Of a stretch of 64,000 nt of DNA, positions 5,086 through 54,507 are shown piece by piece. Position numbers and translations under genes: made by a program. Source of the stretch: Desulfoluna sp. (GTDB lineage: Bacteria > Desulfobacterota > Desulfobacteria > Desulfobacterales > Desulfolunaceae); NCBI RefSeq assembly GCF_030145185.1, contig NZ_JAQYWB010000008.1, positions 43,455-107,454 of the forward strand, in the 5' to 3' direction. The notes beneath the pieces were generated by a model. That model worked only from the letters and a program-made list of their open reading frames with translations. It made no database searches and was not told the DNA's origin. How positions within the stretch are numbered: position 1 is the stretch's first letter; the number at the start of each line of letters is the position of its first letter.

Positions 5086-5330
5086 CCCGGATATTTCACG
5101 AGTCGAGTGCATCCATATTCAAGGCATCAGAGCTGCAGATGTAGTGGTTTACCTCAAAGCTCTGATAACGCAGAAGATGGGTGCACTCGGCTCGCCCGAA
5201 GGGTGAGAAAAGTGAGTAGAAAATGGTGAATTACATTTTGCATTTTTGAAATGTCTATATATTTATTGGTAACAAGCTACAATAACTCATTATTGTCTTG
5301 GTATGGTCGTTTTTTCATGAAATATTCGGG
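5086..5330 (+). repeat. Family-A MITE, copy 1 (245 bp)
   Basis: The ends are imperfect terminal inverted repeats: CCCGGATATTTCACGAG on the left, and on the right CCCGAATATTTCATGAA read on the other strand. A direct TTAG duplication flanks it (5082-5085 and 5331-5334). The left half folds into a nested hairpin: GAGTCGAGTGCATCC pairs with GGGTGCACTCGGCTC, and inside it ATCAGAGCT pairs with AGCTCTGAT. A smaller hairpin, CTCGCCC-GAA-GGGTGAG, follows. Two further copies lie at 51688 and 52216. It has no transposase gene, so it is a non-autonomous element. Confidence 0.85.
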
Positions 5331-49922: not shown

Positions 49923-49938
49923 TGGCATGCTAATTGCT
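49923..49938 (+). promoter_or_regulatory. Sigma-54 promoter
   Basis: TGGCATGCTAATTGCT against the consensus TGGCACG-N4-TTGCA: GG and GC with exactly 10 bp between them, and TTGC complete. It faces the small protein gene at 50153. A sigma-54 activator gene lies next to it (50519-51550, convergent). Confidence 0.75.
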
Positions 49939-50152: not shown

Positions 50153-50395
50153 ATGGCAAGCACTCAGGCTGGGATGGAGGATCATATAGAACGGGGTGGC
50201 TATGATGAGCGGCGAGTACATTCTGACAGGCGTGTCTATTCATACAAGGGGTATTATCCTGAACGACGGGCGGTCAATGATCGCAGGTCTGGGGTCGATC
50301 GCAGATCGGATCGAGTTGAGGGGCCAATTTCGGAAGAGCGCCTGATACTGCAAACTAACCGTCCAGAGATGGATGAGAGTGAGAGGCACGGCTGA
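50153..50395 (+). CDS. Small Arg/Asp-rich protein under sigma-54 control
   Basis: 80 residues, strongly charged, with repeated arginine motifs (DERRVHSDRRVYS, ERRAVNDRRSGVDRRSDR). AAGGAGGG is an excellent ribosome site. No membrane segment or catalytic motif. The arginine pattern resembles the tails near PilZ or other regulatory proteins, but I recognise no family. Expression probably depends on the sigma-54 promoter at 49923, with a family-B element in the leader. Confidence 0.65.
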   Translation: MASTQAGMEDHIERGGYDERRVHSDRRVYSYKGYYPERRAVNDRRSGVDRRSDRVEGPISEERLILQTNRPEMDESERHG

Positions 50396-50518: not shown

Positions 50519-51550
50519 TCAATTGGGTCTGCTGATGTTGAGATTGTCTATTTTGGTTAGCAGCGTTTTGTAACTAATTTTCAGTATTTTTGATGCGTGT
50601 GTTCTGTTCCAGTTTGTAACGCCAAGTACCCGTGAAATAATCTCTTTTTCGACAATATTAGCCGTGTCCTGTTTGATTTTTTTTAGGGAAATCGTCGTCA
50701 TGTCGTCTGTGCTTATGCTTACAATATCTATGATCTCTTTTATGATGTGGCCGTCGATGGGCATCGCCGGATCGGAAACCATGTCTGTACGGGTGTCCTT
50801 TTCAGAGAGAATCTCATTTAACGTAGCTGCATCGCATCCTATGAGGAGTATCCTTTGGAGTAAACTGATAAGTTGTCGGACATTGCCTGGCCACGAGTAA
50901 TGGCAGAGCCTGTTGAATGTTTCGGTGTCCAGCTCATTGATTTTTCGATTGGTGTATTTCTCCTGATAGATCTTCGTGTAGTGTTTGATGAGCTCGGGGA
51001 TGTCCGTGGGGCGTTCGCGAAGAGGGCGAATATAGATTTGAACCATATTGAGGCGGTAGTAGAGATCTTTTCGGAACTCCTTGGCCCGTATTTTTTCGTT
51101 TAAGTTGTTGTTGGTGGCCGAGATGACCCAGGTGTTTGATTTTATATTGGATTCAGATCCAAGGCGATTGTATTCACCACTTTGAAGCACGTGCAGGAGC
51201 TTGGCCTGAAGGTGAAACGACATGTCGCCGATCTCATCCAAGAAGAGAACACCTCCATCCGCCAGCTCAAATTTTCCTTTTCTTTTTTTATTTGCTCCAG
51301 TGTAAGCCCCTTGCTCCACGCCAAAGAGTTCGCTTTCGAGCAGGGTGTCCGGGATCGCCGCACAATTGACCTTGACGAACTCTTTTTTGTTTCGGGGGGA
51401 CTTTTCGTAAAGTGCGCGAGCGACGACTTCTTTGCCTACCCCCGTTTCTCCTGTTATAATTACGTTCAGGGCCGTGTCCAAGGCAATAAGCTCTATGATT
51501 TCACGAATTTTTGCAATAGCGGGACTCACGCCGACGAGGGTGGTATGCAT
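50519..51550 (-). CDS. Sigma-54-dependent activator without receiver domain
   Basis: 343 residues. AAA+ domain from the first residues: Walker A GETGVGKE, the sigma-54-contacting loop GAYTGA (GAFTGA in most), Walker B GGVLFLDEIGD, and arginine finger region FRKDLYYRLN. C-terminal Fis-type helix-turn-helix (WNRTHASKILKISYKTLLTKI). There is no sensory N-terminus, so activity must be set by another protein or by expression. The split receiver-domain gene at 52079-52738 lies upstream on the same strand and could be its lost partner. It could drive the sigma-54 promoters seen here. Confidence 0.88.
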   Translation of the reverse strand: MHTTLVGVSPAIAKIREIIELIALDTALNVIITGETGVGKEVVARALYEKSPRNKKEFVKVNCAAIPDTLLESELFGVEQGAYTGANKKRKGKFELADGGVLFLDEIGDMSFHLQAKLLHVLQSGEYNRLGSESNIKSNTWVISATNNNLNEKIRAKEFRKDLYYRLNMVQIYIRPLRERPTDIPELIKHYTKIYQEKYTNRKINELDTETFNRLCHYSWPGNVRQLISLLQRILLIGCDAATLNEILSEKDTRTDMVSDPAMPIDGHIIKEIIDIVSISTDDMTTISLKKIKQDTANIVEKEIISRVLGVTNWNRTHASKILKISYKTLLTKIDNLNISRPN

Positions 51551-51687: not shown

Positions 51688-51931
51688 CCCGGATATTTCA
51701 CGAGTCGAGCACAACCATTTCAAGGCATCAGGGCTGCAGATGTAGTGGTTTACCTCAAAGCTCTGATAACGAAGAAGGTGGGTGCTCTCGGCTCGGGCGA
51801 AGGGTGAGAAACGCGAGTAGAAAATGGCAAATTACATTTTGCATGTTTGAAATATTTACATTTTGCTTAGTAACTCGCCGTAATGTAATATTATTACATT
51901 GGTTTTACCGTTTTATCATGAGATATTCAGG
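51688..51931 (+). repeat. Family-A MITE, copy 2
   Basis: 244 bp. Left end CCCGGATATTTCACGAG; right end slightly degraded (GATATTCAGG). Flanked by TTAG (51684-51687) and ATAG (51932-51935), so one duplication copy has mutated or the target was WTAG. It keeps the nested hairpins, with changed arms (CGAGCAC against GTGCTCTCG). Lies 138 bp upstream of the sigma-54 activator gene. Confidence 0.82.
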
Positions 51932-52078: not shown

Positions 52079-52738
52079 CTATCTATGGGAAACGTGCGGG
52101 GGCTGCCGATTCGTGGTGGTGGGGGGCCGCAGGCTGATTTGATTCTCCAGTTCACTTAAAATGAGCGGTTTTCCCATGGTGGCGTTAGCTTTCAACTCCT
52201 CAGTCAGAGAGATAGCCCGAATATTTCATGAGAAAGCGACCATGCCAATGCAATAACTATCTATTACAGTTAGTTGTTGTAAAAAATGCAGATATTTCAA
52301 AAATACAAAATGTAACCCACAGTTTTGGACTCGATTTTCTCACCCTTCGGGCGAGCCGGGTGCGCTCATCTGCGGCGTTATCAGAGCTTTGAGGTAAACC
52401 ACTACATCTTCAGCTCTGATGCCTTGCATATGAGCGCACCCAACTCGTGAAATATCCGGGATAGGATGTTCTCCAAACCCTGAAATGGCGATGCTTGGGA
52501 GGTTTGGTGTGTTGTTTTTGATAATCGAAATTAACGCCGCGCCGCTGATATCCGGCATGATTAGATCGGTTCTAATTAAGTCGATGATGTCGGCGTGTGA
52601 GTTGAACAGCTTCAGGCCCTCGACCTCACTTTTCGCCGGCATAACATGATACTGTTTTCCCGAAAGATACATCGTCATCATGCCAAGAAGGATGATCGTA
52701 TTGTCATCGACGACCAGAATGTTTGCCTTTGGTTCCAT
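52079..52738 (-). pseudogene. Receiver-domain response regulator split by a MITE
   Basis: The 5' part (52738 to 52461, about 92 residues) has receiver motifs VVDDN, DLIMPDISG and SIAISGFGE. The family-A element at 52216-52460 follows, and the remaining part (52211 to 52079) reads SLTEELKANATMGKPLILSELENQ, with the receiver's conserved Lys-Pro. Removing the element and one ATAG copy joins the parts in frame to a 136-residue single-domain receiver ending in TAG. As it stands, translation runs into the element and stops after 132 residues, with a foreign tail of about 40 residues and without the conserved lysine. Confidence 0.88.
52216..52460 (-). repeat. Family-A MITE, copy 3, inserted in a receiver gene
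   Basis: 245 bp in the opposite orientation to copies 1 and 2, flanked by perfect ATAG repeats (52212-52215 and 52461-52464). On its own strand the hairpin arms are GGGTGCGCTCAT and ATGAGCGCACCC: still perfectly paired but different in sequence from copy 1. The inner stem ATCAGAGCT/AGCTCTGAT is the same as in copy 1. Confidence 0.9.
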
Positions 52739-52986: not shown

Positions 52987-54507
52987 ATGGACGGTTCAAA
53001 AAGCGGTAAGGCCGATCTTGAATTTTATAGCGGGATGATCGTTAAATGGTATTGGGTATTATTTATACCGTTATCGGTGGCAATGCTTGTGGGGATTTAT
53101 CTTGTTCTTTTCTCACAGAGGTACTATGAATCGACAACCGTTATCCTTGTACAACCCCAAAAATTACCGGAAGACGTCGTAAAAAATGTCGTCGCAGAAG
53201 ACATTAATACCAGAGTAACTACTTTGGCTCAGCGGATTCAGAGCCGAACAAATCTTGAAAAAATTATCAATGAGTTTCATCTTTTTTCTGCGGATCAGTC
53301 TGCCGAAATGTACATGGAGGATATGGTGGCCATTCTCCGCAGCCGTATTTCCGTTACAATCACGAAGGGGCAGAATCGAAATGTAGAGTCTTTCACGGTT
53401 TCATATAAAGGGACCGATCCGAATCGTGTCGCTAAGATTACCCGTACCCTTGCAACGCATATCATCGACGAAAACATGAAGCTCAGAGAGACCCAGGTGC
53501 TGGGCACCAATTCGTTTCTTGAAGATGAAATGGAATCCATGAGAAGAAAACTTGTGGAGACAGAAACAAAGTTAAAAGAGTACAGAGAGCGATATATGGG
53601 GGGGTTGCCTGAACAGTTGGACAGCAACCTTCGTATACTTGACTCTTTAAATGAACGGCTTACCCATGTGCGTGATGACATCAGGTCTTCAAAATACAGG
53701 CTTGATAATCTTCTCCAGAGAATGAATAAACCAACGGACCCGGGTTTGGGAAATGAATATACGCCTGACGAGGTGAAGACTCATCTTGAGCAATTGCGAG
53801 AAGAGTTAAGTCGTCGGTTGAAGCGGTATACAAAATATCACCCGGACGTCCTTCAACTTCAAGCGACCATTGAACAGCTGGAACAGCGTGAGACAGAAAT
53901 CCCGAATGGCGAAACGCCCGTTAAGAAAAAAACGGATACCACGCTTGACCGTCAGCATCGTGGTATCATGAATGAAATTTTGACAAATGAAAAGGAACAG
54001 CAGCAGCTTCTGGGTCAAATTACCGTTTATAAAAAAAGAGTTGAGGATACCCCGAAACGCGAACAGGAGCTCCTCTCTTTGCAGCGGGATTATGATAATA
54101 TCCGACAAGCCTATCATTCACTGTTGGGTCGACAGCTGGAAGCTCAAATTGCGGTAAACATGGAGAAGAAGCAGAAGGGCGAGCAGTTTAGGGTGATCGA
54201 CCCTGCCCGAGTTCCACAAAAGCCTGTTGAACCTGACATGAATAAATTAATCGCGTTTGTTTTGGTGGCCGGTCTTGGCGTCGGGTGCGGAATTATTGCT
54301 CTTCTCGAGTTTTTTTTCCAAACATTCAGAGGCACCAAGTCTGTTGAATCCTTTACCTCTTTACCTGTGATTGCGACTTTGCCTGTGATTGATTTTTCGG
54401 GACCCGTTAAGGGCCGTTTTTTTAAACGTGTTGCCTCGGTTGCCGGAGGAGTGATCACAGTCTCATTGTTGTGTGCATTTCTTGGTATTGCTTTCATTAA
54501 GGGTTAA
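52987..54507 (+). CDS. Wzz-type polysaccharide chain-length determinant (XrtA/EPS locus)
   Basis: 506 residues. Membrane helix near residues 20-43, Wzz-like periplasmic part (YESTTVILVQPQKLPEDVV), a long coiled-coil region (about 170-400), GNVR-like segment near RDYDNIRQAYHSLLGRQLEAQIA, and C-terminal helices (about 418-445 and 485-503). It sets polymer length together with the tyrosine kinase encoded next. The coil-rich form is typical of the chain-length protein in XrtA/PEP-CTERM EPS loci. GGGGGG precedes the ATG. Confidence 0.87.
   Translation: MDGSKSGKADLEFYSGMIVKWYWVLFIPLSVAMLVGIYLVLFSQRYYESTTVILVQPQKLPEDVVKNVVAEDINTRVTTLAQRIQSRTNLEKIINEFHLFSADQSAEMYMEDMVAILRSRISVTITKGQNRNVESFTVSYKGTDPNRVAKITRTLATHIIDENMKLRETQVLGTNSFLEDEMESMRRKLVETETKLKEYRERYMGGLPEQLDSNLRILDSLNERLTHVRDDIRSSKYRLDNLLQRMNKPTDPGLGNEYTPDEVKTHLEQLREELSRRLKRYTKYHPDVLQLQATIEQLEQRETEIPNGETPVKKKTDTTLDRQHRGIMNEILTNEKEQQQLLGQITVYKKRVEDTPKREQELLSLQRDYDNIRQAYHSLLGRQLEAQIAVNMEKKQKGEQFRVIDPARVPQKPVEPDMNKLIAFVLVAGLGVGCGIIALLEFFFQTFRGTKSVESFTSLPVIATLPVIDFSGPVKGRFFKRVASVAGGVITVSLLCAFLGIAFIKG

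What the first reader, a model, noticed from the sequence alone, without database searches (positions are those of the whole stretch)
52079..52738. A 245-bp element splits a receiver gene, and removing it restores the frame exactly
The gene is cut after GFGEHPI of the receiver fold. Deleting 52216-52460 plus one ATAG copy joins codons in frame into SLTEELKANATMGKP, which brings back the missing Lys-Pro of the receiver. The present reading frame runs into the element and gains a foreign tail of about 40 residues. This shows recent insertion, defines target and boundaries to the base, and raises the question of whether the element can leave precisely and turn the regulator on. The receiver lies upstream of a sensor-less sigma-54 activator and next to the EPS locus.
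Basis: seen in the sequence. Interest (0 to 1): 0.75.

Follow-up and report, generated by a model that had tools for sequence, protein, structure and literature searches.

The report
Mobile DNA splits a regulator gene
In a Desulfoluna bacterium, one of hundreds of copies of a 245-base mobile element sits inside the gene for a small signal-receiving protein next to genes predicted to make an outer polysaccharide, and it likely disables that gene for good, because no enzyme of the kind that would likely move the element was found in this genome.

Summary
A 245-bp element (52216-52460) with 17-bp inverted ends and an ATAG duplication interrupts a stand-alone receiver gene. The two gene halves fit consecutive columns of a profile of 13 relatives. 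In 11 of 12 relatives the intact receiver directly precedes the sensor-less sigma-54 activator. Here a second copy (51688-51931) lies between them.

It is a high-copy MITE: 529 end matches in 5.8 Mb, control 2. Its ends and YTAR-like duplications resemble IS1380-family elements found elsewhere. No IS1380 transposase passed the cut-offs in this genome or five congeners, so 'precise excision as a switch' is weak. 'Recent' is uncertain: the copy is a mosaic, its right half 126/128 like the abundant subfamily, its left half about 66-78% like most copies.

Two features add interest: the right half is a hairpin with compensatory changes (26 of 34 pairs; 0/500 shuffles), and a few copies end at internal sites yet carry exact duplications (3 of 7), as with the imperfect right ends of ISEcp1.

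The parts
52216..52460 (+). 245-bp MITE copy (non-autonomous element) inserted in the receiver gene
   Evidence: sequence; same-length copies in own genome and congeners
52216..52232 (+). left terminal inverted repeat CCCGAATATTTCATGAG
52444..52460 (-). right terminal inverted repeat CCCGGATATTTCACGAG
52212..52215 (.). target-site duplication ATAG, left copy
   Evidence: 23 of 28 full copies examined have identical 4-bp flanks
52461..52464 (.). target-site duplication ATAG, right copy
52216..52332 (+). left module of the element, divergent lineage (nearest sampled relative 90%)
52333..52460 (+). right module: hairpin supported by compensatory changes; 126/128 identical to the consensus of the abundant subfamily
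52461..52738 (-). receiver gene, N-terminal part (beta1 to beta4, DD, phospho-acceptor D, Ser; fold positions recalled)
   Evidence: Pfam PF00072 45.3 bits, profile columns 1-90
52079..52215 (-). receiver gene, cut-off C-terminal part with the Lys-Pro motif
   Evidence: profile columns 93-118, 10.9 bits vs best shuffle 4.2
52340..52738 (-). present open frame, 132 aa, with about 40 residues read from the element
51688..51931 (-). second, more diverged MITE copy between receiver and activator (flanks CTAT/CTAA)
50519..51550 (-). sigma-54 activator without sensor domain (AAA+ and Fis-type HTH), open frame intact
   Evidence: PF00158 226.7 bits, PF02954 32 bits; 58% identical to the syntenic relative
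52987..54507 (+). EPS locus, first gene: Wzz/GNVR chain-length protein
   Evidence: PF13807, PF02706; synteny
5086..5330 (-). third full MITE copy in the window (flanks CTAA/CTAA)

Best explanation
A 245-bp non-autonomous transposable element with inverted ends like those of IS1380-family insertion sequences lies in the receiver gene between two ATAG copies, cuts the gene after GFGEHPI, and likely inactivates the receiver. Shown: ends, duplication, high copy number, colinearity of the two gene halves, adjacency of intact receiver and activator in relatives. Inferred: an IS1380-type transposase, now not found in this genome, acting in trans inserted it. Inferred: the truncated product, lacking alpha4-beta5-alpha5 and the conserved lysine, cannot work as a phosphorylatable receiver, so the sensor-less sigma-54 activator beside it is left without its partner. 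Inferred: the loss is in practice permanent, since restoring the gene would need rare RecA-independent slippage between 4-bp repeats or a newly arrived transposase.
For: Ends and duplication in the sequence. 529 end matches in the own genome, 2 for the reversed control pattern. 23 of 28 own copies and 16 of 21 congener copies examined have identical 4-bp flanks, mostly YTAR-like. In viral contig L128 an IS1380 transposase (NF033539 390 bits, PF13701 527 bits) lies between an exact end CCCGGATATTTCACGAG and a second end with 3 mismatches. In genome G059, which carries MITEs with the same ends, an IS1380 element with intact transposase has such ends (1 and 4 mismatches) and TTAG on both sides; three transposase fragments in G058 also lie beside such ends. 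Receiver halves fit consecutive profile columns. Receiver and activator are neighbours on one strand in 11 of 12 relatives, 1-274 bp apart, and activator, receiver and six EPS-locus genes are syntenic in a relative of the same family.
Against: No IS1380 transposase above cut-off in the host genome or congeners, so the mobilising enzyme is inferred from other species and rests on the short ends and duplications; no IS1380 element sharing the interior was found. Of six genomes with these ends only one has an IS1380 match above cut-off. No allele of this site without the element was seen. The upstream half still has an intact start and open frame, so a residual role of the 132-aa product cannot be excluded. 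The C-terminal 17 residues of the cut-off part match nothing.
Confidence: 0.8

Rival explanations
1. Reversible switch: the element leaves precisely in some cells and restores the receiver, so that EPS control is phase-variable.
For: The frame is restored exactly when the element and one ATAG are taken out; strong hairpin potential of the element (z about -9) could favour slippage between the repeats.
Against: No cognate transposase above cut-off in the genome; the repeats are only 4 bp; the copy's left module is about 10% from its nearest sampled relative, which does not suggest ongoing movement.
Confidence: 0.07
2. Exaptation: the element was kept because it gives the receiver a new tail, or its hairpin or promoter-like sites retune the downstream activator.
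For: The present frame stays open for 132 aa; insertion of 249 bp keeps codon phase; copies are rarely in open frames (4 of 27, this one included, against 285 of 540 random positions), so this one is unusual; promoter-like sites on the minus strand inside both copies.
Against: The tail has no match in the receiver profile (-2.8 bits) and comes from DNA that is conserved as a hairpin; promoter scan is only a consensus match (9 found in the region, 4.0 expected from shuffles).
Confidence: 0.1
3. Assembly artefact: a short-read assembler joined repeats wrongly.
For: Ten of 51 unselected contig starts begin inside this element, so the repeat does break the assembly.
Against: Both sides of the element carry the two halves of one gene, in frame, with matching ATAG; a wrong join would not do that. 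Only the inner bases of the repeated right module could be affected.
Confidence: 0.03

Closest known systems
IS1380 family insertion sequences (NF033539 / PF13701)
   Same: Ends equal or close to CCCGGATATTTCA(C/T)GAG (0-4 mismatches) and YTAR-like 4-bp flanks in L128 and L258; similar ends beside the fragments L259, L263, L264
   Different: No transposase gene inside; interior not shared with any IS1380 element seen; no IS1380 transposase above cut-off in the host or five congeners
MITEs of bacteria (definition as in PMC4133298, passages read: small multicopy elements with terminal repeats, mobilised in trans)
   Same: 245 bp, terminal repeats, hundreds of copies, no transposase gene, duplications
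   Different: Asymmetric: one half is a long hairpin kept by compensatory changes; mobility not shown here
ISEcp1 (IS1380 family, placement recalled), imperfect right end use (PMC2887853 and PMC12589106, passages read)
   Same: Some copies stop at internal ...CGGG sites and still show exact duplications (3 of 7)
   Different: Here non-autonomous, 4-bp instead of 5-bp duplications, and the alternative ends lie inside the element rather than outside
Stand-alone receiver plus sensor-less sigma-54 activator pair of relatives in the same order
   Same: Receiver 38-48% identical over the N-terminal part (13 used), activator 51-58%, adjacent on one strand in 11 of 12
   Different: Receiver broken here, and a second element separates it from the activator

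Membership tests
MITE (non-autonomous inverted-repeat element) | terminal inverted repeats, short length, no transposase | tested here: met
   17-bp ends with 2 differences, 245 bp, no ORF of 60 aa or more of its own beyond the receiver frame that runs into it
MITE (non-autonomous inverted-repeat element) | many copies dispersed in the genome | tested here: met
   529 end matches, control 2
MITE (non-autonomous inverted-repeat element) | target-site duplication | tested here: met
   ATAG here; 23 of 28 own copies examined
MITE (non-autonomous inverted-repeat element) | mobilised in trans by a transposase | not testable with these tools
   no transposition assay
IS1380-derived element | ends and duplication shared with an IS1380 element | tested here: met
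   L128 (one exact end, one with 3 mismatches; flanks CTAA/TTAG) and L258 (1 and 4 mismatches; TTAG/TTAG)
IS1380-derived element | cognate transposase in the same genome | tested here: not met
   own genome and five congeners, none above cut-off
IS1380-derived element | interior derived from an IS1380 element by deletion | tested here: inconclusive
   no autonomous element sharing the interior was found; a 1551-bp candidate in G001 turned out to be two MITE copies around a host gene
Response regulator receiver (PF00072) | acidic pair, phospho-acceptor Asp, Ser/Thr, Lys (motif set recalled) | tested here: inconclusive
   all present over both pieces; the Lys lies only in the cut-off piece, so the present ORF lacks it
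Sigma-54 activator (PF00158) | AAA+ domain with GAFTGA-type loop (recalled) and C-terminal HTH | tested here: met
   226.7 bits, GAYTGA in the sequence, HTH_8 32 bits
Rfam family | match to a curated structured RNA | tested here: not met
   one hit at E 0.81, 21.1 bits against a gathering score of 80, over the second copy

The most novel reading that the evidence does not exclude
The right half of the element is a distinct structured module: a hairpin with a nearly constant internal-loop core (CTGCGTT...GCCTTG) and freely exchanged stems, shared by several families of one order. It is combined with different left modules and ends, and acts as a recognised folded end or as a functional transcript of a trans-mobilised element family.
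Probability: 0.3. Interest if true: 0.6.

Novelty: new variant of a known kind. Interest (0 to 1): 0.42.

Why it matters
As a single event it is an ordinary gene interruption by a small transposon, although intragenic copies are rare in the sample. The family matters more. It has hundreds of copies in a genome without a detectable transposase, a right half whose fold is kept while its stems change across families of an order, and copies that stop at internal cryptic ends with perfect duplications. That makes it a natural data set on how loosely an IS1380-type transposase chooses its second end, a trait otherwise known from ISEcp1 in resistance gene spread. It also points to a receiver and sensor-less activator pair beside polysaccharide genes.

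Tried and rejected
Autonomous partner in the genus: PF13701 and NF033539 searches and the L128 transposase gave nothing above cut-off in G000-G005. The 19-bit PF13701 hit at C26 (one stop inside) lies in none of the ORFs of 100 aa or more listed. The 1551-bp pair in G001 was two MITE copies around a host gene. Long pairs of ends in G058 (L171, L172) showed no transposase-like ORF by eye (no family search run). One search looked for inverted ends around other IS1380 genes of the order: L090 and L109 begin CCTGAAT..., which resembles but does not equal the end here; L111, L112, L113 and L115 gave none; L110 gave unrelated ones. A plasmid search with the element gave no match. One with a 40-base end gave 11 records, all short matches at chance level except perhaps a 20-base exact hit in a Candidatus Magnetococcus plasmid, not followed up. 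A phage search with the right module gave none.

Fixed length across phyla: one search asked only for ends 196-226 bases apart, so the similar lengths in Gammaproteobacteria are partly an effect of the query; their interiors scored no more than the ends alone. Similar hairpin patterns in L133, L162 and L265 look like chance when folded. Weak model hits in the Pseudomarimonas elements L131 and L133 (22.7 bits, E 0.002) were left open. A sigma-54 promoter scan showed no excess over shuffles (78 matches, 89 expected). Paper searches were seen as listings and gave nothing on this family.

Full report
WHERE. The window lies in genome G000 (5.79 Mb, 152 contigs). Its 'same genus' genomes G001, G002 and G005 contain contigs whose lengths equal those of Desulfoluna limicola ASN36 (6,263,790), D. 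spongiiphila AA1 (106,368) and D. butyratoxydans MSL71 (527,805). The host is therefore a Desulfoluna species by inference.

OBSERVATION. The sequence shows ATAG, a 245-bp element from CCCGAATATTTCATGAG to CTCGTGAAATATCCGGG, and ATAG again. The gene on the minus strand is a receiver (PF00072, 45.3 bits, profile positions 1-82 of 111) whose present ORF runs into the element. I built a profile from 13 relatives, the best matches; a fourteenth, L054, was dropped because its contig ends inside the gene. The upstream piece fits columns 1-90, the cut-off piece columns 93-118. Joined over one ATAG the protein scores 128.4 bits, the present ORF 104.6, the element-coded tail -2.8. The cut-off piece alone scores 10.9; the best of 1000 shuffles was 4.2, with 749 scored at all. 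The cut comes just after the fourth strand of the receiver fold, so alpha4, beta5 with the lysine, and alpha5 are lost from the product (fold positions recalled from CheY).

NEIGHBOURS. The gene below is a sigma-54 activator without a sensor domain (PF00158 226.7 bits, Fis-type HTH, GAYTGA loop). I compared 12 longer stretches of relatives. In 11 of 12 an activator homologue starts 1-274 bp after the receiver stop on the same strand; in L253 none was found beside it. In L246 (same family) activator, receiver and six further EPS-locus genes are syntenic. Here the two genes are 528 bp apart and a second, more diverged element copy (51688-51931, flanks CTAT/CTAA) lies between them. The receiver and activator thus look like one small operon that has been hit twice. 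Loss of receiver control is an inference; whether the activator becomes silent or unrestrained cannot be told from sequence.

THE ELEMENT FAMILY. The end CCCGGATATTTCACGAG with up to 2 mismatches occurs 260 + 269 times in the own genome; the reversed control pattern occurs 0 + 2 times. With two ends to a copy this means hundreds of copies. Of 58 genomes searched, 15 had any match; 245-bp copies were found in G000, G001, G002 and G005, part-length ones in G004, none in G003, and short partial matches, mostly to the right half, in ten genomes of other families of the order. Duplications were counted on full copies that lay in fetched loci. These are a sample picked by similarity to this copy or by intact ends, not a census. 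23 of 28 in the own genome and 16 of 21 in congeners have identical 4-bp flanks. Shuffling the right flanks gives means of 6.5 and 3.7 and maxima of 16 and 8. YTAR is the commonest form: 19 left and 21 right of the 28. The copy in the receiver has ATAG. Of 27 own copies with enough flank, this one included, 4 fall in an open frame of at least 120 aa across the empty site, against 285 of 540 random positions in the same loci. At least one of those 4 (L036) is antisense to an intact gene. Intragenic insertion is the exception in this sample.

WHICH TRANSPOSASE. In viral contig L128 a 447-aa IS1380 transposase (NF033539 390.3 bits, PF13701 527 bits) lies between an exact end and a far end with 3 mismatches, with flanks CTAA and TTAG. 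In G059, a Lysobacterales MAG with 30 exact ends, an IS1380 element with an unbroken transposase frame has ends with 1 and 4 mismatches and TTAG on both sides; its transposase is 52% identical to that of L128. In G058 (143 exact ends) three transposase fragments lie next to such ends. Of the six genomes with these ends searched, 4 had any NF033539 match and only 1 was above cut-off. In the own genome and five congeners nothing passed the cut-offs: PF13701 gave one 19.1-bit hit in G000 (cut-off 34.7), NF033539 one 23.4-bit hit in G002 (cut-off 180), and the L128 protein none. G001 (D. limicola by length) is a single contig, so absence there is not an assembly gap. The mobilising enzyme was therefore lost, comes and goes, or is too distant for these searches.

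AGE AND MOSAIC. Over its right 128 bp the copy in the receiver matches the consensus of 18 own copies at 126 of 128 positions, and many contig-end copies at 125 or 126. Over its left 117 bp it matches the own copies at only 66-78%. The nearest left halves in the own genome are at C125 (90%) and C54 (87%), from 40 scored of 303 candidates. Both belong to shorter elements without most of the right module. The element is thus a mosaic joined near the shared TTTTCTCACCCTTCGGGC stretch. 'Recent' is neither proved nor excluded. Recombination before insertion, or conversion after it, would both give this picture.

ALTERNATIVE ENDS. One search lists 16 own-genome elements that have the left end but not the full right half. 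Nine keep a right inverted repeat (internal deletions). Seven lack it; of these, three stop at an internal ...CGGG and are flanked by exact duplications (CTAA/CTAA in L237, CTAT/CTAT in L244, TTAA/TTAA in L243). For an end fixed beforehand one expects about 1 in 256 each by chance; the ends were read by eye, so this is a guide only. L210 has CTAA/TTAG, and the other three do not match. Of four congener rows, L170 keeps the right repeat and the other three show no exact case. Imperfect right-end recognition with duplications is described for ISEcp1, an IS1380 member (passages of PMC2887853 and PMC12589106 read; ISEcp1's family placement is recalled). The same behaviour is the simplest reading here.

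HAIRPIN. As RNA the element folds far better than shuffles on either strand (z -9.2 and -8.6). On 27 right modules (10 own, 11 of three congeners, 1 of G004, 5 of other families) 94.7% of cells pair and 26 of 34 pairs show changes on both sides. 0 of 500 shuffles reach any of the five measures, and sliding the partners destroys the signal. The structure was derived from the same alignment and relatedness inflates such counts, but exchanged stems in sequences not used for the alignment point the same way: L251 87.6 bits, L081 57.8, L250 44.3. No Rfam family matches. What the fold does is unknown. My preferred guess is a folded transposon end or a transcript-level role.

VERDICT. A correctly seen, exactly bounded insertion of a MITE with IS1380-type ends that likely inactivates a receiver. 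The switch idea has no support beyond the exact frame and the hairpin. The family-level features are the more interesting part. Literature: a search for MITE plus IS1380 plus bacteria returned 4 papers (for one of them, PMC4133298, passages were read, the others were seen as listing only); passages of PMC3281130 on IS1380 were read; a search for Desulfoluna plus repeats returned 2 (listing only). None was seen to describe this family, which is no proof that it is unpublished.

Noticed in passing
52333-52460; L251:18314-18442; L250:32-148; L081:1481-1608: A hairpin with a nearly constant core (CTGCGTT...GCCTTG) and changing stems recurs in several families of the order; in L081 no element end of this kind was found, and none is seen in the bases printed around the L250 hairpin.
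   Followed up: partly
L237, L243, L244 (own genome): Shorter elements (136 or 145 bp) stop at internal CGGG sites and carry exact 4-bp duplications, as if the transposase used cryptic right ends.
   Followed up: partly
49923-49938 +: TGGCATGCTAATTGCT, the best sigma-54-promoter-like site of the window (1 mismatch to the pattern, which as a whole found no excess over shuffles), about 215 bp before an 80-aa ORF at 50153-50395.
   Followed up: no
L131, L134, L138, L148, L155 and others of L129-L168 (genome contigs): Elements with the same ends but unrelated interiors occur in Pseudomarimonas, Lysobacterales, Salinisphaeraceae, Burkholderiales and Desulfarculus records.
   Followed up: partly
contig starts C90-C140 of G000: Ten of 51 contig starts begin inside this element, so it is a frequent cause of assembly breaks in this genome.
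   Followed up: partly
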